Shown one piece after another: positions 1 to 52,980 of a stretch of DNA of 64,000 nucleotides. Numbering within the stretch: the stretch's first letter is position 1; every line of letters begins with the position of its first letter. Where the stretch lies: assembly GCA_026874595.1 (NCBI GenBank), contig CM049312.1:79151429-79215428 (forward strand), read 5' to 3'. The stretch comes from Sipunculus nudus (taxonomy: Eukaryota > Annelida > Sipuncula > Golfingiida > Sipunculidae). Under the pieces are notes generated by a model. The model was not told the origin of the DNA. It saw nothing but the letters and a program-made list of their open reading frames with translations, and did no database searches. Position numbers and translations under genes: made by a program.

Positions 1-674
1 TTATCTGAATCCATGTCTGAGTCCAGGCTACTCGAGTCTGAGTCCCATGTCTGAATCCAGGCTATCTGAATCCATGTCTGATTCCAGGTTATCTGAATCC
101 ATGTCTGAGTCCAGGCTACTCGAGTCTGAGTCCCATGTCTGAGTCCAGGCTACTCGAGTCTGAGTCCCATGTCTGAGTCCAGGCTACTCGAGTCTGAGTC
201 CCATGTCTGAGTCCAGGCTGCTCAAGTCTGAGTCCCATGTCTGAGTCCAGGTTATCTGAATCCATGTCTGAGTCCAGGCTACTCAAGCCCAAGTCTGAGT
301 CCAGGCTACTCGAGTCTGAGTCCCATGTCTGAGTCCAGGCTATCTGAATCCATGTCTGAGTCCAGGTTATCTTATCCATGTCTGAGTCCAGGCTACTCTA
401 GTCTGAGTCCCATGTCTGAGTCCAGGCTATCTGAATCCATGTCTGAGTCCAGGTTATCTGAATCCATGTCTGAGTCCAGGCTACTCGAGTCTGAGTCCCA
501 TGTCGGAGTCCAGGCTACTCCAGTCTGAGTCCCATGTCTGAGTCCAGGCTACTCAAGTCTGAGTCCCATGTCTGAGTCCAGGCTACTCGAGTCTGATTCC
601 CATGTCTGAGTCCAGGTTTTCTGAATCCATGTCTGAGTCCAGGCTACTCAAGCCCAAGTCTGAGTCCAGGCTAC
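1..674. repeat. Minisatellite of TCTGAGTCCAGG-type units
   Basis: Head-to-tail short units built on TCTGAGTCCAGGCTAC alternate with TCGAGTCTGAGTCCCATG (34-bp period) or ATCTGAATCCATG (27-bp period). The array starts before base 1, so its left edge is outside the window. Open frames such as 325-528 (+) and 116-379 (-) only translate the repeat (Ser/Glu/Arg or Asp/Ser-rich strings) and have no splice or domain support. Read as a tandem repeat, not a gene. Confidence 0.95.
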
Positions 675-1654
675 TTGAGTTAAGTGCAAGTCTGAGTCCA
701 GGCTACTTGAGTTAAGTGCAAGTCTGAGTCCAGGCTACTTATGTTAAGTGCAAGTCTGAGTCCAGGCTACTTGAGTTAAGTGCAAGTCTGAGTCCAGGCT
801 ACTTGAGTTAAGTGCAAGTCTGAGTCCAGGCTACTCGAGTCTGAGTCCCATGTCTGAGTCCAGGTTATCTGAATCCATGTCTGAGTCCAGGCTACTTGAG
901 TTAAGTGCAAGTCTGAGTCCAGGCTACTTGAGTTAAGTGCAAGTCTGAGTCCAGGCTACTTGAGTTAAGTGCAAGTCTGAGTCCAAAATACTTGAGTTAA
1001 GTGCAAGTCTGAGTCCAGGCTACTCGAGTCTGAGTCCCATGTCTGAGTCCAGGCTATCCTTAGGGTTCAAGTACTAGTCCACCTTCTTTGAGTCCAAGTC
1101 ATTTGGAACACAAGTCTGAGTTAAATATAAATCTCCTTATTAAAAGAAGTTTAATATAAACATTTTGAGTTAAGTGCAAGTCTGAGTCCAGGCTACTTGA
1201 GTTAAGTGCAAGTCTGAGTCCAGGCTACTTATGTTAAGTGCAAGTCTGAGTCCAGGCTACTTGAGTTAAGTGCAAGTCTGAGTCCAGGCTACTTGAGTTA
1301 AGTGCAAGTCTGAGTCCAGGCTACTCGAGTCTGAGTCCCATGTCTGAGTCCAGGTTATCTGAATCCATGTCTGAGTCCAGGCTACTTGAGTTAAGTGCAA
1401 GTCTGAGTCCAGGCTACTTGAGTTAAGTGCAAGTCTGAGTCCAGGCTACTTGAGTTAAGTGCAAGTCTGAGTCCAAAATACTTGAGTTAAGTGCAAGTCT
1501 GAGTCCAGGCTACTCGAGTCTGAGTCCCATGTCTGAGTCCAGGCTATCCTTAGGGTTCAAGTACTAGTCCACCTTCTTTGAGTCCAAGTCATTTGGAACA
1601 CAAGTCTGAGTTAAATATAAATCTCCTTATTAAAAGAAGTTTAATATAAACATT
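675..1654. repeat. Two tandem 490-bp higher-order repeat units
   Basis: Copy 1 (675-1164) and copy 2 (1165-1654) appear identical base for base by eye. Each contains several 32-bp subunits (TCTGAGTCCAGGCTACTTGA then GTTAAGTGCAAG), one TTATG variant, one CCAAAATAC variant, and a unique 3' part starting TAGGGTTCAAGTACTAGTCC (1061 and 1551, exactly 490 apart). The shared unique part shows that a composite block, not just the short unit, was duplicated. Near-identity implies a very recent duplication, ongoing homogenisation, or an assembly duplication. 1655-1813 is non-repetitive spacer. Confidence 0.93.
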
Positions 1655-1897
1655 TTAGATTATCATGTGTATTAAACAATAGTTTGCATTTACTTTTTAC
1701 TTAAAAGGTTAATTACATTTAGCTAAGGTGTGTTAGTATTTGGTACATCCATAAGTCTTATAGTATGTGACAGAGTGTTTTACTGGACTTGGGATGAACT
1801 CAGTCTGATTTTTAGCTCAGCTGACTGAAAGTCATCTGAGCTATAGCGATCACTCTTTGTCCGTCGTCCGTCTGTCCGTCTGTCCGTCCGTCCGTCC

Positions 1898-3870
1898 GTT
1901 AACCAGGCACAAATCGTAACCGCTGGACCTAGAACCTTGTAACTTGGGATTCTGAGAGGCCCATAAAAATTCCTTGGAAACCAGAAATTAGGTCTCTGTT
2001 ACCCATTTCCTTCGAGCTATGTGGCCCCAAAGTACCCCCCAGAAAAGTCAAAAATTTCATACAAAAACTTCAATATCTCATTAACTACTTGACTGATGGT
2101 CATGATTTTTGGCATACATATTGATCATGAGATGTTACATCACTTCCTGCAGACTGGTGGCGCCACCTGTATTTTTCGATTTTTTACGAATTTTTTTCTC
2201 TATTTTTGAGACCTTTAAAATAGTGAACATCTGTTAACAAGGCACAAATCATAAAGACTGGACTTAGAATCTTAATTCTTGACACACTGAGAGGTCCATA
2301 AAAAATCTCCTTGGAAACCAGAAATTAGGTCTCTGTTACCCATATCCTTCGAGCTATGGGGCCCCAAAGTACCCCCCAGAATAGTAAAAAATTTCATACA
2401 AAAACTTCAATATTTCAATAACTACATCACTGATGGTCTTAATTTTTGGCATACATATTGATCATGAGATGTTCGATCAGTTCCTGCAGACTGGTGGCGC
2501 CACCTGTACTGTTTGATTTTTTACGATTTTTTCCTCTATTTTTGAGACCTTTGAGGATGCTGTCATCTGTTAGCGTGGCACAAATCGTAACGACTGGACC
2601 TAGAATCTTCATTTTCGACACACTGAGAGACCTATGAAAAGTCTCCATGGAAACCAGAAATTAGGTCTCTGTTACCCATATCCTTCGAGCTATGGGGCCC
2701 AAAATAACCCCCCAGAATAGTCAAAAATTTCATACAAAAACTTCAATATCTCATTAACTACATCACTGCTGGTCATGATTTTCGACATACATATTGATCA
2801 TGAGATGTTTCATCAGTTTGTGCAGACTGGTGGCACCACCTGTATTTTTCAATGTTCACGAATTGTTTTCTCCATTTTTGAGACCTTTAAGGATGTAGTT
2901 ATCTGTCAACAGGGTACAAATCGTAACGACTGGACCTAGAATCTTTGTTCTTGACACACAGGGAGACCCATGATAAGTCTCCATGGAAACCTGAAATTTG
3001 GTCTCTGTTACCCATATCCTTTGAGCTATGGCACTCCAAAGTACAGCTCAGAATAATGGAAAATTTGATACAAAAGCTAAAGTATATGAACAACTAATGC
3101 AGAGATAACCATAATTGTTTGCATGGATATTGATTATGGAGTGTTTCATAAGTTTCTGCAGACTGGTGGCACCACCTGTATTTGTTCGTTTTTTTTTACG
3201 AAATTTTTCTGTATTTTTGAGACCTTTAAAGATATGAACATCTGTTAACAGGGCACAAATCATAAAAACTGGACCAAGAATCTTCATTCTTGACACACAG
3301 GGAGACCCATGAAAAGTCTCCATGGAAACTTGAAATTAGGTCTCTGTTACCCATATTCTTTAAGCTGTATGGGTCCAAAATACCCCCCCCCCCCCCCAGA
3401 ATAATGGAAAATTTGATACAAAAACTGCAGTATTTCAATAACTACAACACTGATGGTCATGATTTTCGGCATACATATTGATCATGAGCTGTTCCATCAG
3501 TTTCTGCAGACTGGATGTGCCACCTCTATTTTTTTTCAAATTTTTACGAATTTTTTTCTTTTTTTTGAGACCTTTAAAGATGTGGTTATCTGTCAACAGG
3601 GTACAAATCGCAACAACTGGACCTAGAATCTTCATTCTTGTCATGCAAGGAGGCCCATGAAAGGTGCCTGTGGAAACTTGAAATTAGGTCTCTGTTACCC
3701 ATATCCTTCAAGCTATAGGACTCCGAAGTATCCCTCAGAATAATGGACAATTTGATACAAAAACTGAAGTATCTGAACAACTAATGCAGAGATCACCATG
3801 ATTTTTTGCATGGATATTGACCATTAAGTGTTTTTATTACTTTCTGCAGACTGGTTGAGCCACCTGTATT
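1898..3870 (+). repeat. Tandem array, about six 338-bp units
   Basis: Units begin near GTTAACAGGGCACAAATCGT at about 1898, 2231, 2567, 2903, 3242 and 3590, giving periods of roughly 333-348 bp. Each unit carries, in order, an ACTGGACCTAGAATC segment, GGTCTCTGTTACCCATATCC, a CATACATATTGATCATGAG segment, and CTGCAGACTGGTGGCGCCACC or a diverged form. Units 1-3 keep the GGTGGCGCCACC palindrome best, and later copies vary (GGTGGCACCACC, GGATGTGCCACC). A poly-C tract lies at about 3383-3398. The array yields false ORFs on both strands. Confidence 0.9.
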
Positions 3871-3873
3871 TTT

Positions 3874-5045
3874 GTATCCGCCAAAACGAAGTTTTGCGGA
3901 TACTATGTTTTTGACCGAGTTCCTCCACCGCGGCGGCGTTCGTTTCCAGAGGGCTCCTCGGAGACTAATGGACCGATTTTTCCCAAACTTACACCTATTA
4001 TCGGGTCACATGTGAACTGGTGCCTAACCAATTTGCGTTGACCTCCGACCTTTCTTCTCTATCCAGTGTCCATTTGTGGGTCTGTTTCCACTCATAAACC
4101 CTCATATCTCGGGAACCGTTTGACCGATCAGGAAATAAAATTGATACAAACGTAGCCCTTGGATTGCTTTATAACATACACAAAAAATGGTTGCGCCACC
4201 TGTAACCATGTTTGCACAGTGTCCATCTGTTCATCTGCCTTGGGTTAAAATCACTCATATCTCTGCAGTGAATTGACTAATTCACCTGAAATTCGTCATG
4301 CGTATACATCTAGGATAGCTTTCTTGATTTTATGACAGGTGGCGCCACCTACGTTCACGTTCACGCTGATGACATCCAAGCTTATATCTTGGGAACCGTT
4401 TGACCGATCAGGAAATAAAATTTATACAAATGTAGCCCTTTGATAGCTCTGTAACATACACAAAAAATGGTGGCGCCACCTGTAACAATGTTTGCACAGC
4501 GTCTGTCTGTTAGTCTGCCTTGGCCTAAAATCACTCATTTCTCTGTAGTGGTTCGACATAACTGCCTAAAATTTTGCAGGTTTATACATCGTGGACAGCT
4601 TTCTTGATTTTATGACAGGTGGCGCCACCTACATTCTAGTTAACGCTGCACACATCCAAGCTCATATCTCAGGAACCATTTGACCGATTGGGCCAAAATT
4701 GTGCATGTGTGTAGATCTCACATAGGTCTTTATCATACACAAAACTGGAGGGGTTACCTGCAAAGATTTTTGCACAGTGTTTGTCTGTTTGTCTGCCATG
4801 GGCAAAAAACGCTCATATACATGTAGTGGTTTGACTTTTCTGCCTAAAATTTTGCAGGTGTATACAACTTGGACAGCTTTCTGGATTTGTGGTAGGTGGC
4901 ACAACCTACATACACATTTAGGCTGCAGACATCCATGCTAATATGCAACAAACCTCACTCTATTTCCCCTTGCCACTCAATCCATGCCTCACTATCCGAT
5001 TTTGGCAGATACATGTAGTCACTTGTCGGTTACCCGTATTCTAGT
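3874..5045 (+). mobile_element. Hairpin-headed repeat family, full copy 1
   Basis: It begins with a 30-bp near-perfect inverted repeat (3874-3903; arms GTATCCGC and GCGGATAC extended by AAAAC/GTTTT, 3-base loop), then a CpG-rich stretch (CCGCGGCGGCG). Next come internal units carrying CATATCTCGGGAACCGTTTG, TTTGCACAG and GACAGGTGGCGCCACCTAC. It ends near TTTTGGCAGATACATGTAG and TACCCGTATTCTAG. The same head and tail bound a second copy at 28818-30385, and the head alone occurs at 60200. No coding capacity is seen. It sits inside the larger AGCTCAGCTGACT-bounded element, indicating nesting or co-evolution. Confidence 0.8.
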
Positions 5046-26699: not shown

Positions 26700-27720
26700 G
26701 CGATGGTGCGGCGTCGTCCGTCGTGTGTCGTGCGGTGTGCGTCGTGCGTCGTCTGTAGGTTAACCATACTTATCTCAAAAACGGCAGGAGCTAGCATCAC
26801 CAAAATTTTTTGCAAATAATCTGTCATCCAAAAAATTATATCGGATTTTGTTTATTGTTTTTTCTAACTGCATTTTCTTAGATTTTGTTGGGAAAAAGCT
26901 AAAAAAGCTTTAAAAATCTTCTTCTCTGAAACCGTCCAGCCAAATTGTCCAATATTTCACAGAAACGATCCCTAGAACAATCTTTCTCAAGTTTGTTCGA
27001 ATGGTTTCAGTTCGGAGATTTTTGGCTGAGTTACAGAAGGTTGAACTTTGTTAACTGTGCAAAAAAGCATATTAAAATTTAAATCTCAGAAACGACTGGA
27101 GCTATCATCACCAAATTTTAGGCCAATGTTGGTCACATAGGTCATATCTGAAATTGAGGTATTGGTGGCGCCACCTGCATCTGCCTTTGTTGTACAGGGT
27201 CATCAGTGCCTGTATCACTTTGAGGGCTACAAAAAACTTCTTCTCTGAAACCATATGGCAAAAATGTTTAATATCACACAGAAATAATCCTAGGGTAGTG
27301 CTTTCTGAAATTTGTTCAAATGGTCTCTTTTCAGTGACTTTTGGCTAAGTTATTGGAAGCTGAATTTAGTCATATGCCATAACAGCCCATTTTAGCTCAG
27401 TGGCTACAAAGGTCTTCTTCTCAAAAACCACTGGGCCAAATTCTTAAATCTCACACATAAATTATCCTCAGATGTTGATAATTCAAATTTGTTCAAATGG
27501 TTTTGGTTCATAGCTTTTTGGCTGAGTTACGGGAAGCTGAACTTAACCAGTTTGCTGTATCTTCCTATATGAGTTATTAACCTGCAAAACATTTTCAACT
27601 GATGCCACTGAAGCCAGTTTGTTAAATATTTTACGAGAATAATCCCTCTTATAATAATTGTCATTAATGGTTCCAGATGAATGATTTTTGGCTGAATTAT
27701 GGAGATTGAATTGAGTCATT
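26700..27720 (+). repeat. GTCGTCCGTC-headed repeat with about four internal units
   Basis: A GTC-rich simple stretch (about 26710-26758) is followed by CTTATCTCAAAAACGGCAGG. Diverged units with CTTCTTCTCTGAAACC ... TTTGTTCAAATGGT ... TTTTTGGCTGAGTTA then recur at about 26917-27057, 27231-27371, 27409-27549 and 27600-27717. A perfect GGTGGCGCCACC lies at 27164-27175. The CTTCTTCTCTGAAACCACTGGGCC wording is typical of a widespread lophotrochozoan repeat (knowledge). There is no coding capacity. Confidence 0.75.
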
Positions 27721-28549: not shown

Positions 28550-30385
28550 TTGACCTGTCTGTGCGTCTTTGATGGTATTCTCATTTACAAGACAGGTAGT
28601 GCCACCAACATTGACTTTTGCAGTGTATGCGCTTGCTTATTTCTACAGAGGAATTTGATACATCAGCCTAAAATTGGGCATGTTTATACATTTCGGGTAG
28701 CTTTATAGTGTACAAGACTGGTGGCGTCACCTACAATAATTTTTGCACAGTGTATGTCCCTGCTTATTTCATAGGAGGGGTTTGTTTGACATACTGGTGG
28801 TGCCAGCTTCAATCATTGTATCCGCCAAAACAGAGTTTTGCGGATACTATGTTTTCAGTTGGACGCCAAAGCTGCCGCCATCGCCGTATAGGTTTCTGGA
28901 GAACTCCTCCATAACCACTGGGCAGAATTTTTTAAAATTTGGAATTATGATCGGTCACATGTGAACTGCGCCCTCATTTTTGGTTGACCTCTGACCTTTC
29001 CTCTCTGCCCAGCGCCCATTTGTGTGTCTGTTTCCACACATAAACCCACATATCTCGGGAACCGTTTGACCGATAAGGCTAAAGATTTTGCACAAATGTA
29101 GCCCTTGGAAAGCTTTATAACATACACTAAAATGGTGGCACCACCTGCAACCATTTTTGCACAGCGTCCATCTGTTCATCAGCCTTGGGATAAAAACACT
29201 CATATCTCTGCATTGGTTGGACTTATATCCACCTGAAATTTTGCATGTGTATACATTCTGGCCAGCTTTCTTGATTTTATGACAGGTGGCGCCACCTACA
29301 TTCACGTTTAAGCTGCAGACATCCAAGCTCATATCTCGGGAACCATTTGACCAGTTGGGCCAAAATTTTGCATGTGTATAGATCTCCCATAGCTCTTTAT
29401 CATATGCAAAACTGGTGGTGCCACCTGCCACAATTTATGCACAGCGTTCATCTGCCTTGGGATAAAATCACTCATATCTCGGTAGTGGTTTGAGTTATCC
29501 ACCTGATATTTTGCGGGTTTATACATCCTTGACAGCTTTCTTGATTTTATGACAGGTGGCACCACCTACATTCACATTTAAGCTGCAGACATCTAAGGTC
29601 ATATCTCGGGAACTGTTTGACCAGTTGGACCAAAATTTTGCATGTGTATAGATCTCCCATAGCTCTTTATCAAATGCAAAACTGGTGGTGCCACCTGCCA
29701 CTATTTTTGCAGTGTCCATCTGTTCATCTCCCTTAGGATAAAATCACTCATACGTTTGACATACCCCCCTGCAATTTTGCATGTGTATAGATCTCACATA
29801 GCTCTTAATCATACACAAAATTGGTGGTGCCATCTGCCACCATTTTTGCACAGTGTCCGTCTGTTTGTCTGCCGTGAGCTAAAATCACTCATATCTCAGT
29901 AGTGGTTTGACTTATCCACCTGAAATTTTGCGTGTTTATACATCTTGGATAGCTTTCTGGATTTTTTGGAAGGTGGCGCCACCTACATTTATGTATATGC
30001 TGCAGACATTCAGGCTTATATTTCAGGACTGGTTTGACTTATCCACCTGAAATTTTGCATGTTTATACATCTTGGATAGCTTTCTGGATTTTTTGGAAGG
30101 TGGCGCCACCTACATTTATGTATATGCTGCAGACATTCAGGCTTATATTTCAGGACTGGTTTGACTTATCCACCTGAAATTTTGCATGTGAATACATCCT
30201 GGACAGCTTTCTTGATATTATGACAGGTGGCGCCACCTACATACACATTTCGGCTGCAGACATCCAGGCTATTATGCAACACACCTCACTCTATTTTCCC
30301 TTGCCACTCAATATATTCCTCACTTCACCTTTCCCACTCTGATTTTGGCAGATACAGGTAGATGCTTGTTGACTACCCATATTTT
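28550..30385 (+). mobile_element. Hairpin-headed repeat family, copy 2 with expanded internal units
   Basis: From 28818 this matches the element at 3874. It has the same 30-bp hairpin head (28818-28847), the same CATATCTCGGGAACCGTTTG / TTTGCACAGCG / GGTGGCGCCACC internal modules, and the same tail (TTTTGGCAGATACAGGTAG, ACTACCCATATTTTAG). It is longer because internal units are amplified: GCTGCAGACATCCAAG modules at 29311 and 29581 are 270 apart, and a 127-bp unit is tandemly repeated at about 29904-30155. 28550-28817 is a diverged unit of the same kind upstream of the hairpin. Minus-strand ORFs (for example 28955-29431, 158 codons) are read-through of these units, not genes. Confidence 0.82.
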
Positions 30386-43170: not shown

Positions 43171-43275
43171 ATATATCCAGATCCTGAACTGCAGATGGAA
43201 ATCACTGAGGGGATGGTGCGATGTATGTTCTACACTGAGGGATGCACATGGAAAGACAGACTTCATCTGTTACAG
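43171..43275 (+). CDS. TRAF4: TRAF4 exon: first TRAF zinc finger
   Basis: A 105-base, 35-codon exon between TTGTTACAG and GTATAA, phase 0 on both sides. It begins IYPDPELQMEITEG, directly continuing PLDYA from the previous exon, and contains C-x6-C (CMFYTEGC). The His and Cys that complete this finger lie in the next exon (AHLEDC), giving C-x6-C-x11-H-x3-C. This is the first of the TRAF-type zinc fingers in the central region between RING and MATH, which in TRAF family members supports partner binding and ubiquitin-ligase activity. The donor is non-ideal at its last positions but in frame. Confidence 0.93.
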
Positions 43276-43914
43276 GTATAAAAACAGAGATAAGAGATAG
43301 CTAGCTGATAATGGATATATGTCTCCCTGAAATAAAACTGAAATAGTAATGCATGTAAAACATATACTAAGCATGTATAAAGGTGTGCAGCATCATGATT
43401 ATCAGCATTTGATTTCAGCATGCAGCATTTGATAAAAATATAAAAGGTAATATAAGTGATTCATACTAAAACTCATGATTATCATGTCTAATGGATATCA
43501 TTTTGGACTTCAATTGCAATCGTCAGAGCAAAACTCGGATTACTTCATTACTATGTTGCCTTAGTGCAACGCATTATTATAGGAAGTGGAATTTCAGGGA
43601 ATTTCTTCATGGGGCTAAAAATAGTTATGAATATATTTTATCTATTGAATAATAGTGAATTGATAGTTATAGTGGATTACTCTTTAAACCATAGTTTAAA
43701 AAAAAACAAGTGTAAAAATCCTGCTCATTCCATGGTTTTAATCAAGCAATTATCTAATTATCTATTTTCAGATCAGTTTCCAGGAAATTAGTGATCAGAA
43801 ATGACAAAACCAGATGTGTGACAAGCATTTTAAATATGACCAATTAATCACTTTTATAGCTAGTGCACCATAAAACACTCAAATCCCTGGGATGATTACT
43901 TTCTATACCCACAC

Positions 43915-44054
43915 TTTCTGGTATTATATTTACGTTTTTCGCATTATAGGCACACTTGGAGGACTGCCACTACAACAATGTCCTGTGCTCCAATGACTGT
44001 TCCACTCAGCTCTCTAGAATGGCCTTAGAAGATCATTTTCTAGTATTATGTTGA
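43915..44054 (+). pseudogene. Duplicated decoy copy of the next TRAF4 exon's 5' half
   Basis: About 122 bases including the acceptor tract (TTTTCGCATTATAG) and the first 29 codons of the zinc-finger exon are tandemly duplicated upstream of the real exon (43950 versus 44072). The copies differ at about six of the first 87 exon bases. The upstream copy has R to H and P to S changes, so CPNDC becomes CSNDC and a normally conserved Pro is lost. It has no donor and reaches an in-frame TGA at 44052-44054 after 34 codons. The acceptor looks as good as the real one. If used, it would truncate TRAF4 within the zinc fingers; otherwise it must be skipped every time. Confidence 0.9.
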
Positions 44055-44071
44055 GGTCTTTTGCATTATAG

Positions 44072-44233
44072 GCACACTTGGAGGACTGCCGCTACAACAA
44101 TGTCCTGTGCCCTAACGACTGTTCCACTCAGCTCTCTAGAATGGCATTAGAAGACCATCTTCACTACACATGCCCACGTCGTCAGGTCACGTGCGAGTTC
44201 TGTAGCCAGGAGTTCACTGGAGAACTCATGGAG
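44072..44233 (+). CDS. TRAF4: TRAF4 exon: zinc fingers 1-3 region
   Basis: A 162-base, 54-codon exon after TTGCATTATAG and before GTAGGT, phase 0. It completes finger 1 (AHLEDC), holds finger 2 as CPNDC-x11-H-x4-C, and opens finger 3 with CEFCSQEFTGELME, whose His and Cys (THQGNC) come from the next exon. Splitting fingers across phase-0 introns is a regular pattern in this gene. It is chosen over the similar upstream copy because it alone keeps the CPxxC motif, an open frame to a good donor, and a continuing finger. The foldback element at 44277 lies just downstream in the intron. Confidence 0.95.
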
Positions 44234-44276: not shown

Positions 44277-44669
44277 CAGGAGCCAATCCAGGATTAAGAA
44301 AAAAGAAGGGTCCAAGCCAGGAGGACTTAGGACAAAACCTGGACAAATGTCCCCAGGTCAGAAAAAAGGGGGTTCCTGGCCACAAAATTGGTCTGAAACC
44401 CTGGGGGAAAGGTTGTGGTGGCTGAAAAGAAGGGGGTCAGGGTTCATTTATGAAAATTATACAGAAGAGGATCCAGGGGAAGGGTCCAGGGGGTCCGGAC
44501 CCCCCCTTTTTCATCCACCACAACTTTTTTTAAAGAGTTTCAGACAATATTAAGCGGCCCGGACCCCCTTTTTCCTGACATGGGGACCTTTTTTTTTTAA
44601 GGTTTTCTTTAGTCCTCCTGGGTTGGACCCCCCCCCCCTTTTTCTAAATCCTGGATCGATCCGCCCCTG
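44277..44669. mobile_element. Foldback MITE in TRAF4 intron
   Basis: Its two halves are reverse complements over almost the whole length. The left half has CCAGGATTAAGAAAAAAGAA, CCAGGAGGACTTAGG, GGTCTGAAACCCTG and GTTGTGGTGG. The right half has CCACCACAAC, AGTTTCAGAC, AGTCCTCCTGGG and AATCCTGGATCGATCCGCCC. The centre is the perfect palindrome GGGGGTCCGGACCCCC (44489-44504). GGGGCGGATC-type ends and GGGGGGTCC arms are characteristic of a MITE family common in marine invertebrates (knowledge). The ORF 44347-44553 is spurious. Confidence 0.88.
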
Positions 44670-45143: not shown

Positions 45144-45305
45144 ACCCACCAGGGTAACTGCCTGTATGAGACAATATGGTGTGAAAACAAATGTGGTGCG
45201 CGTCTACAGAGGCGTTTCCTTAGCAACCACATGAGAAACGAATGCCACAAAAGAACATTGCCATGCCAGTATTGTCAAAAAGAGTTTGTTTACGAAACAT
45301 TACAG
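45144..45305 (+). CDS. TRAF4: TRAF4 exon: zinc fingers 3-5 region
   Basis: A 162-base, 54-codon exon between CTCTTCAG and GTATGT, phase 0. It completes finger 3 (THQGNC), carries CENKCGARLQRRFLSNHMRNEC (C-x3-C-x11-H-x4-C), and opens another finger with CQYCQKEFVYETLQ, finished by DHYYRC in the next exon. ENKCGAR and the C-x-Y-C-x-K-E-F pattern are close to animal TRAF4, more than to TRAF2/3/6 (from knowledge of the family). Same length as the preceding exon, reflecting the repeated zinc-finger module. An in-frame ATG upstream (45096) belongs to the intron, not to a start. Confidence 0.95.
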
Positions 45306-45869: not shown

Positions 45870-46025
45870 GATCACTACTATCGCTGCCCTCGGTTCCCCA
45901 TGATGTGTCCTAACAGGTGCGATCCGATGAAGATTGCTCGTGAGGACATCGACAAACATGTCAATGAACAGTGTCCCTCGGCATCCATACCATGTCCTTT
46001 TAAAGAAGCAGGGTGCCAGGCTATG
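45870..46025 (+). CDS. TRAF4: TRAF4 exon: last TRAF zinc fingers
   Basis: A 156-base, 52-codon exon after CTGTTTCAG and before GTGAGT, phase 0. It contains DHYYRC (end of a finger), CPNRC-x12-H-x4-C, and CPFKEAGC (C-x6-C), the start of the last finger that continues in the final exon with CPRYQQDKH. The REDIDKH and CPFKxxGC segments are conserved in TRAF4. The ORF extending to 46214 is read-through into the intron. Confidence 0.95.
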
Positions 46026-52365: not shown

Positions 52366-52980
52366 TGTCCCAGATACCAGCAAGACAAGCATCTTGAGGA
52401 GAGCATGAAGGAACACCTGACATTAATGTGTAACCTCGTCAAAGACCAGAAAGAGACTATTTCATTCCTGAACAAGCGTCTGAAACTCCTATCTCAAGTC
52501 TCAGATGGCATTATGGTATGGAGGATAGATGACTTTAAGGCCAAAATGGCTGACGCCAAACTGAAAGTTGATCTTGAGATGAGAAGTGACACCTTTTACA
52601 CTAGTCGCTATGGTTACCACATGTGTGCATCAGCGTTTCTAAACGGAAATGGCACAGGAGAAGGAAAATACTTGTCATTGTATATTAAAGTTCTGCCCGG
52701 GGAGTACGATAATATTTTAGAGTGGCCATTTCAGCTTCCGATTTCATTCACAGTGCTGGATCAGTGTTCAGATCCTGAGAAGAGGTTGCCAGTGCGAGAA
52801 AGTTTCATCCCAAATCCATCATGGAAGCATTTTCAGAAACCTTTAGGTGACAGAGACTCAATGGGTTTTGGGTATCCAAAATTTGTTTCTCACGAGACAC
52901 TTCTGAATGGCACATATATAAAGGATGATTCTCTATTTCTTCGCATAAAAGTGGATACGCATAGTGTTATAATAAGGTGA
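52366..52980 (+). CDS. TRAF4: TRAF4 terminal exon: coiled coil and MATH/TRAF domain
   Basis: 204 codons plus TGA after TTTTGGTTGCAG, phase 0; the open frame extends upstream to 52273 but that part is intron. Residues 1-15 finish the last zinc finger. Residues 17-45 (CNLVKDQKETISFLNKRLK) are the short heptad-like coiled coil. Residues 48-200 are the MATH (TRAF-C) domain, with GIMVWRIDDF, FYTSRYGYHMCASAFLNGNG, LSLYIKVLPGEYDNILEWPF, SWKHFQKP and MGFGYPKFVSH. The domain forms the trimeric receptor/adaptor-binding head. The six visible exons sum to 416 residues; with a normal RING exon of about 50 the total would match the usual 470 of TRAF4. The domain shows no break. TRAF4 acts in JNK/NF-kB-linked and cell-junction signalling in other animals (knowledge). 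Confidence 0.97.
   Translation, partial: CPRYQQDKHLEESMKEHLTLMCNLVKDQKETISFLNKRLKLLSQVSDGIMVWRIDDFKAKMADAKLKVDLEMRSDTFYTSRYGYHMCASAFLNGNGTGEGKYLSLYIKVLPGEYDNILEWPFQLPISFTVLDQCSDPEKRLPVRESFIPNPSWKHFQKPLGDRDSMGFGYPKFVSHETLLNGTYIKDDSLFLRIKVDTHSVIIR

What the first reader, a model, noticed from the sequence alone, without database searches (positions are those of the whole stretch)
43915..44233. Tandem partial duplication of a TRAF4 zinc-finger exon creates a decoy exon with an intact acceptor and an in-frame stop
The sequence shows 122-bp-spaced copies of acceptor plus 29 codons (43950 and 44072). The upstream copy has lost the CPxxC proline, has no donor, and hits TGA at 44052. If the upstream acceptor is ever used, TRAF4 is truncated after the first finger region (a possible poison or regulatory splice product). 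If not, the spliceosome must skip an almost identical acceptor. Three of the five changed codons are synonymous, which hints that the copy diverged recently or was under constraint for a time.
Basis: partly seen in the sequence, partly recalled or inferred. Interest (0 to 1): 0.72.

Follow-up and report, generated by a model that had tools for sequence, protein, structure and literature searches.

The report
Decaying half-copy of a TRAF4 exon
In an animal TRAF4 gene, a 122-base stretch holding the end of an intron and the first half of the next exon is present twice in a row; the upstream copy can only give a truncated protein if it is spliced in, and it is most likely an ordinary decaying duplication that may leak some non-productive RNA.

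Summary
Window 43912-44033 and 44034-44155 are head-to-tail 122-nt copies, 109/122 identical. They lie at an intron/exon border of an animal TRAF4 gene. The downstream copy leads into the complete 54-codon zf-TRAF exon 44072-44233. The upstream copy keeps the acceptor AG and 29 codons (two amino acids changed, three codons synonymous), has no convincing donor, and meets TGA at 44052. As 122 is not a multiple of 3, a second in-frame stop follows at 44148. Use of acceptor 43950 is therefore non-productive, with its stop well placed for NMD.

The stronger readings are not supported: the substitution pattern needs no constraint on the copy, and expression, conservation and regulation could not be tested. 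Some leakage into NMD is thus plausible. Best reading: a neutral partial exon duplication with two competing 3' splice sites; ordinary in kind.

The parts
43171..43275 (+). TRAF4 coding exon (35 codons, IYPDPEL...HLLQ), donor CAG|gtataa
   Evidence: Splice signals and open phase-0 frame joining to the next exon. No Pfam match above cut-off; one weak match, LPD15, E 0.031, 14.6 bits against 27.
43912..44033 (+). Upstream copy of the 122-nt tandem duplication (38 nt intron end + 84 nt exon start; left edge 43912-43915)
43932..43932 (+). Branch-like A in TTTAC, 18 nt before the upstream exon start (yUnAy match)
   Evidence: motif match only, motif recalled
43948..43949 (+). Intact upstream acceptor AG; nearest upstream AG 86 nt away
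43950..44051 (+). Truncated zf-TRAF reading frame (34 codons, 29 of them in register with the real exon; CSNDC instead of CPNDC)
   Evidence: Pfam zf-TRAF 26.5 bits, E 1.1e-5, just under the 27-bit cut-off
44052..44054 (+). In-frame TGA if 43950 is used; second in-frame stop at 44148
44034..44155 (+). Downstream copy of the 122-nt duplication
44054..44055 (+). Extra AG 16 nt upstream of the productive acceptor AG; the upstream copy has none there
44070..44071 (+). Productive acceptor AG
   Evidence: phase-0 open frame with both neighbours
44072..44233 (+). Complete zf-TRAF exon, 54 codons, donor GAG|gtaggt
   Evidence: Pfam zf-TRAF 47.9 bits, E 2.2e-12
45144..45305 (+). Second zf-TRAF exon, 54 codons
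   Evidence: Pfam zf-TRAF 41.8 bits
45870..46025 (+). Third zf-TRAF exon, 52 codons, donor ATG|gtgagt
   Evidence: Pfam zf-TRAF 61.9 bits
52366..52980 (+). Last coding exon: TRAF/MATH domain, with stop
   Evidence: Pfam TRAF-mep_MATH 145.4 bits; best solved chains 7ypc (TRAF) and TRAF4 chains 4k8u, 3zjb

Best explanation
A 122-nt tandem duplication, probably made by slippage or template switching, copied the last ~38 nt of a TRAF4 intron and the first ~84 nt of the following zf-TRAF exon. The downstream copy stayed joined to the rest of the exon and its donor, so it serves the productive mRNA. The upstream copy was left inside the intron without a donor and is drifting. It still offers an acceptor at 43950 that competes with 44072 for the same upstream donor (43275) and the same exon donor (44233). 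When it loses, it is simply intron. When it wins, the exon is extended to 284 nt, the frame meets TGA at 44052, and the mRNA should be removed by NMD. Shown: anatomy, frames, stops, splice-signal matches. Inferred: mutational mechanism, neutrality, some leakage, NMD.
For: Direct repeat of 122 nt, 109/122 identical, with identity falling off at both ends. The complete exon with donor is the downstream one and matches zf-TRAF over nearly its whole length, 47.9 bits. No convincing donor in copy 1. Two in-frame stops and a unit length not divisible by 3. TGA lies 497 nt before the last exon junction, well beyond the recalled 50-55 nt NMD rule. The substitution pattern is compatible with a drifting copy 1 plus synonymous drift in copy 2. 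Duplicated exons are common: PMC9013439 (passages) cites a study with about 10% of animal genes. Competing 3' splice sites are a described class: PMC9225289 (abstract and passages) reports for human genes an overall preference for the upstream 3' site, strong under intron definition and significantly reduced for pairs of similar strength when both flanking introns exceed 250 nt; its abstract adds that under exon definition the sites closest across the exon are preferred, which here would be 44072. The introns here are 796 and 910 nt (arithmetic on the exon coordinates).
Against: No RNA, long-read or population data, so neither the duplication nor its splicing is verified outside the assembly. 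The exonic part differs less (6/87) than the intronic part (7/38), Fisher p = 0.063, and the model with all changes in copy 1 gives as few amino-acid changes in only 5.8% of runs; both lean weakly towards some constraint or gene conversion. The upstream acceptor has the better crude signals and in two of three folded stretches is predicted more open, so it is not obvious why the productive site should dominate.
Confidence: 0.78

Rival explanations
1. Regulated poison 3' splice site: use of 43950 is tuned by tissue or stage to lower TRAF4 through NMD, and selection keeps the upstream acceptor.
For: Acceptor intact, nearest upstream AG 86 nt away, TTTAC at -18; stops and NMD geometry; slightly low divergence of the exonic part.
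Against: No conservation or expression evidence; the divergence pattern needs no constraint; an acceptor can stay intact simply because the copy is young.
Confidence: 0.07
2. Assembly or haplotype artefact: two alleles or misplaced reads were laid in tandem.
For: Tandem short duplications can arise in assembly (general knowledge, no call); no reads were available.
Against: 11% divergence, with ends 122 nt apart and little similarity beyond. Other tandem arrays in the window fit a genome prone to tandem duplication.
Confidence: 0.08
3. Pair of mutually exclusive or cassette exons.
For: Both copies carry acceptors and near-identical coding sequence.
Against: Copy 1 has no convincing donor; the GT sites near its end would leave introns of 29 or 16 nt; it ends in a stop.
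Confidence: 0.01
4. Two-step removal: splicing first to 43950, then from the AG|GC at 43950 to 44072 as a 122-nt GC-AG intron, restoring the normal mRNA (akin to the proto-splice-site route of intron gain).
For: AG|GCACAC occurs at both acceptors. PMC2891723 (passages) describes duplications with AG/GY proto-splice sites as a source of introns.
Against: GCACAC fits the recalled GC-donor consensus poorly, and the same CAG|GCACAC junction stands in the normal mRNA, so it would not be told apart.
Confidence: 0.02

Closest known systems
Tandem exon duplications (PMC9013439; passages seen)
   Same: Head-to-tail copy of coding exon sequence with its 3' splice site inside the same gene
   Different: Only the first 29 of 54 codons are copied, without a convincing donor; it is very unlikely to act as a separate exon
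Competing (alternative) 3' splice sites, including the competing-site experiments of Reed and Maniatis as described in PMC9225289
   Same: Two nearly identical 3' splice sites compete for one 5' splice site
   Different: Natural and partly diverged; use of the upstream site is non-productive; usage not measured
Intron change by tandem duplication (PMC2891723; passages seen)
   Same: Partial tandem duplication at an AG/GY site, with exonic sequence left as intron
   Different: No new intron is made; an existing intron is lengthened by 122 nt
Poison exons / AS-NMD (e.g. PMC11357089; search listing with start of abstract)
   Same: Inclusion brings in a premature stop
   Different: No donor of its own and no evidence of conservation or regulation

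Membership tests
TRAF4 gene | zf-TRAF repeats followed by a C-terminal TRAF/MATH domain | tested here: met
   Three zf-TRAF exons and TRAF-mep_MATH above Pfam cut-offs
TRAF4 gene | C-terminal domain closer to TRAF4 than to other TRAFs | tested here: met
   Of 28 solved sequences at E up to 1e-10, the best is 7ypc (193.3 bits, named only TNF receptor-associated factor), the next six are TRAF4 (177.7-187.3 bits), then TRAF3 at 133.7
TRAF4 gene | N-terminal RING finger | tested here: inconclusive
   Two regular expressions over six frames found no RING in the window; a RING split by an intron would be missed and the first exon may lie outside the window
Tandem exon duplication | Significant head-to-tail similarity | tested here: met
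Tandem exon duplication | Complete duplicated exon with its own acceptor and donor | tested here: not met
   Acceptor present, no convincing donor, 29 of 54 codons; so a partial duplication
Poison exon / AS-NMD element | Inclusion creates a premature stop upstream of an exon junction | tested here: met
   TGA 44052, 497 nt before the last junction
Poison exon / AS-NMD element | Inclusion in RNA, rising when NMD is blocked | not testable with these tools
   No RNA data
Poison exon / AS-NMD element | Conservation of the element | tested here: inconclusive
   Only the last exon was used as query; no confirmed relative in viral contigs or genome contigs, which are not animal collections; the genome search did not complete (8 attempts)

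The most novel reading that the evidence does not exclude
The upstream, non-productive acceptor is the stronger of the two, so a sizeable share of TRAF4 transcripts is sent to NMD; the duplication is then a young cis-acting element that sets TRAF4 dosage, a natural version of a competition experiment between duplicated 3' splice sites.
Probability: 0.15. Interest if true: 0.45.

Novelty: new member of a known kind. Interest (0 to 1): 0.2.

Why it matters
If the two near-identical acceptors are both active, the locus is a ready-made natural experiment on how a spliceosome chooses between duplicated 3' splice sites, and on how partial exon duplications are tolerated with NMD as a safety net. Otherwise it is one of many decaying intragenic duplications.

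Tried and rejected
Mutually exclusive exon: rejected, no convincing donor and an in-frame stop.

Constraint on copy 1 from the synonymous excess: not needed. P(two or fewer non-synonymous codons) is 0.058 with all six changes in copy 1, and 0.14, 0.30 and 0.60 with one, two or three of them synonymous in copy 2 (5000 runs each, copy 2 taken as ancestor, half of all mutations transitions, both chosen by me).

RNA structure hiding the upstream acceptor: ViennaRNA in three stretches gave mean unpaired probability (-20..+4) of 0.44, 0.60, 0.58 for copy 1 and 0.44, 0.37, 0.42 for copy 2 (no shuffled control). No support for hiding copy 1; if anything copy 2 is less open.

Relatives: only the last exon (204 aa) was used as query. 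It found no confirmed relative in viral contigs (2 pattern matches, 0 confirmed) or genome contigs (28 pattern matches, 0 confirmed), as expected for an animal gene. The species was not identified.

Other genes: ten of the longer ORFs, picked by me, gave no Pfam match at E 0.01; ARAGORN found no tRNA.

Papers: a search for TRAF4 splicing gave 30 papers, 15 listed, none of these 15 on this feature by title; brought up the background papers cited; two searches gave nothing that I used. No claim is made that the feature is absent from print.

Full report
Observation. The stretch 43912-44155 consists of two head-to-tail copies of 122 nt, found also by TRF as period 122, 2.0 copies, 89% matches, from 43915, and by blastn of the window against itself (129 nt, 89.1%, E 1.6e-42). 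The identity at offset 122 falls from 7-10 of 10 inside to about chance outside, in 10-nt bins (one bin further upstream, 43860, also shows 7 of 10); the left edge is ambiguous between 43912 and 43915. In a scan of ungapped offsets 60-500 over the whole window for stretches with at least 90 of 122 matches, grouped in 500-nt bins, 14 bins came up. Nine lie in the arrays of 1-4944, three in the arrays of 29172-30270, one at 26912 (exactly 90/122), and one is this one (110/122). No shuffled control was run for this region; the blastn E-value and the scan are the grounds for saying that it is not chance.

Gene. On the + strand the window carries exons 43171-43275, 44072-44233, 45144-45305, 45870-46025 and 52366-52980. 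Their joined translation is open from end to end to the stop, with phase-0 junctions. Three exons score above the zf-TRAF cut-off (47.9, 41.8 and 61.9 bits against 27), and the last carries the TRAF/MATH domain (145.4 bits). Against solved structures the last exon's best chain is 7ypc (193.3 bits), named TNF receptor-associated factor, followed by six TRAF4 sequences at 177.7-187.3 bits, with TRAF3 next at 133.7. No RING motif was found by two regular expressions over six frames, so the first exon is probably outside the window, split, or too diverged for the patterns.

Copies. The downstream copy runs into the complete exon with donor GAG|gtaggt. The upstream copy has the same TTATAG|GCACAC acceptor and 29 codons in register. 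There are 13 differences: 7 of 38 intronic nt and 6 of the 87 nt of these codons (Fisher p = 0.063). Five codons differ, three of them synonymously; the two replacements are R to H and the CPxxC proline to S (written from copy 2 to copy 1). From acceptor 43950 the frame reads 34 codons and stops at TGA 44052. The next in-frame stop is at 44148, in a shifted frame of the real exon, because 122 is not a multiple of three. GT dinucleotides in copy 1 were listed. The two near its end, CTA|GTATTA (44043) and GAG|GTCTTT (44056), are poor by the recalled consensus and would leave introns of 29 and 16 nt. Copy 1 is thus very unlikely to be an exon of its own; it can act as a 122-nt 5' extension of the real exon. 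No donor-scoring program was available.

What the acceptors look like. I compared six acceptors by crude features (motif definitions recalled). Copy 1: 12 of 17 pyrimidines at -20..-4, nearest upstream AG 86 nt away, one yUnAy (TTTAC) with its A at -18. Copy 2: 10 of 17, nearest upstream AG 16 nt away (the shortest of the six; the others are 27, 35, 52, 78 and 86), no yUnAy in the stretch examined. Exon 43171 also lacks a yUnAy and has 10 of 17, so these features do not disqualify copy 2. Predicted folding gives no sign that copy 1 is hidden. The upstream site is therefore not visibly weaker. PMC9225289 (abstract and passages) reports for human genes that the upstream 3' site is preferred overall among pairs at least 20 nt apart, that this preference is significantly reduced for pairs of similar strength when both flanking introns are longer than 250 nt, and, in its abstract, that under exon definition the sites closest across the exon are preferred. 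Here the introns are 796 and 910 nt, so exon definition would favour 44072. A mixed outcome with the productive site sufficiently used is the reasonable forecast; it is not a measurement.

Constraint. I placed six substitutions on the 29 codons at random, with copy 2 as ancestor. If all fell in an unconstrained copy 1, two or fewer non-synonymous codons arise in 5.8% of 5000 runs; if one, two or three are synonymous changes in the functional copy 2, in 14%, 30% and 60%. As copy 2 will also have drifted at synonymous sites, no constraint on copy 1 is required, though a little cannot be excluded.

Mechanism. Best reading: tandem duplication across the intron/exon border, the downstream copy kept by selection because it alone is joined to the rest of the exon, the upstream copy drifting in the intron and occasionally used, with the product removed by NMD (TGA 497 nt before the last exon junction). 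The anatomy is shown; origin, neutrality, leakage and NMD are inferred.

Known context. Tandem duplicated exons are common (PMC9013439, passages, cites a study reporting about 10% of animal genes). Partial tandem duplication at AG/GY sites is a described route to new introns, and a premature stop was found in all 18 individual sequences of such introns in that study (PMC2891723, passages). Competing 3' splice sites are a studied class (PMC9225289). The finding is a new instance of these kinds, not a new kind.

Limits. The species is unknown; no RNA, reads, polymorphism or animal relatives could be reached. The genome search did not answer in eight attempts, and the two collection scans, made with the last exon only, found no confirmed relative.

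Noticed in passing
44286-44656: A 371-nt imperfect palindrome (68.6% identical to its own reverse complement), about 50 nt downstream of the donor at 44233, inside the next TRAF4 intron; looks like a foldback or MITE-like element.
   Followed up: no
1-1656: Dense tandem array of TCTGAGTCCAGG-type units; includes a 490-nt unit repeated twice with 100% matches (675-1656), which could be real or an assembly duplication.
   Followed up: no
4104-4944, 29172-29752, 29891-30270: Related tandem arrays with different periods (280, 270 and 127 nt) that match each other across 25 kb.
   Followed up: no
26912-27545: Three direct repeats of about 140 nt, about 71-74% identical; coding content was not tested.
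   Followed up: no
1-43170: No RING-finger motif was found by two regular expressions in six frames of the window, so the first TRAF4 exon is either more than 43 kb upstream, split, diverged or missing.
   Followed up: partly
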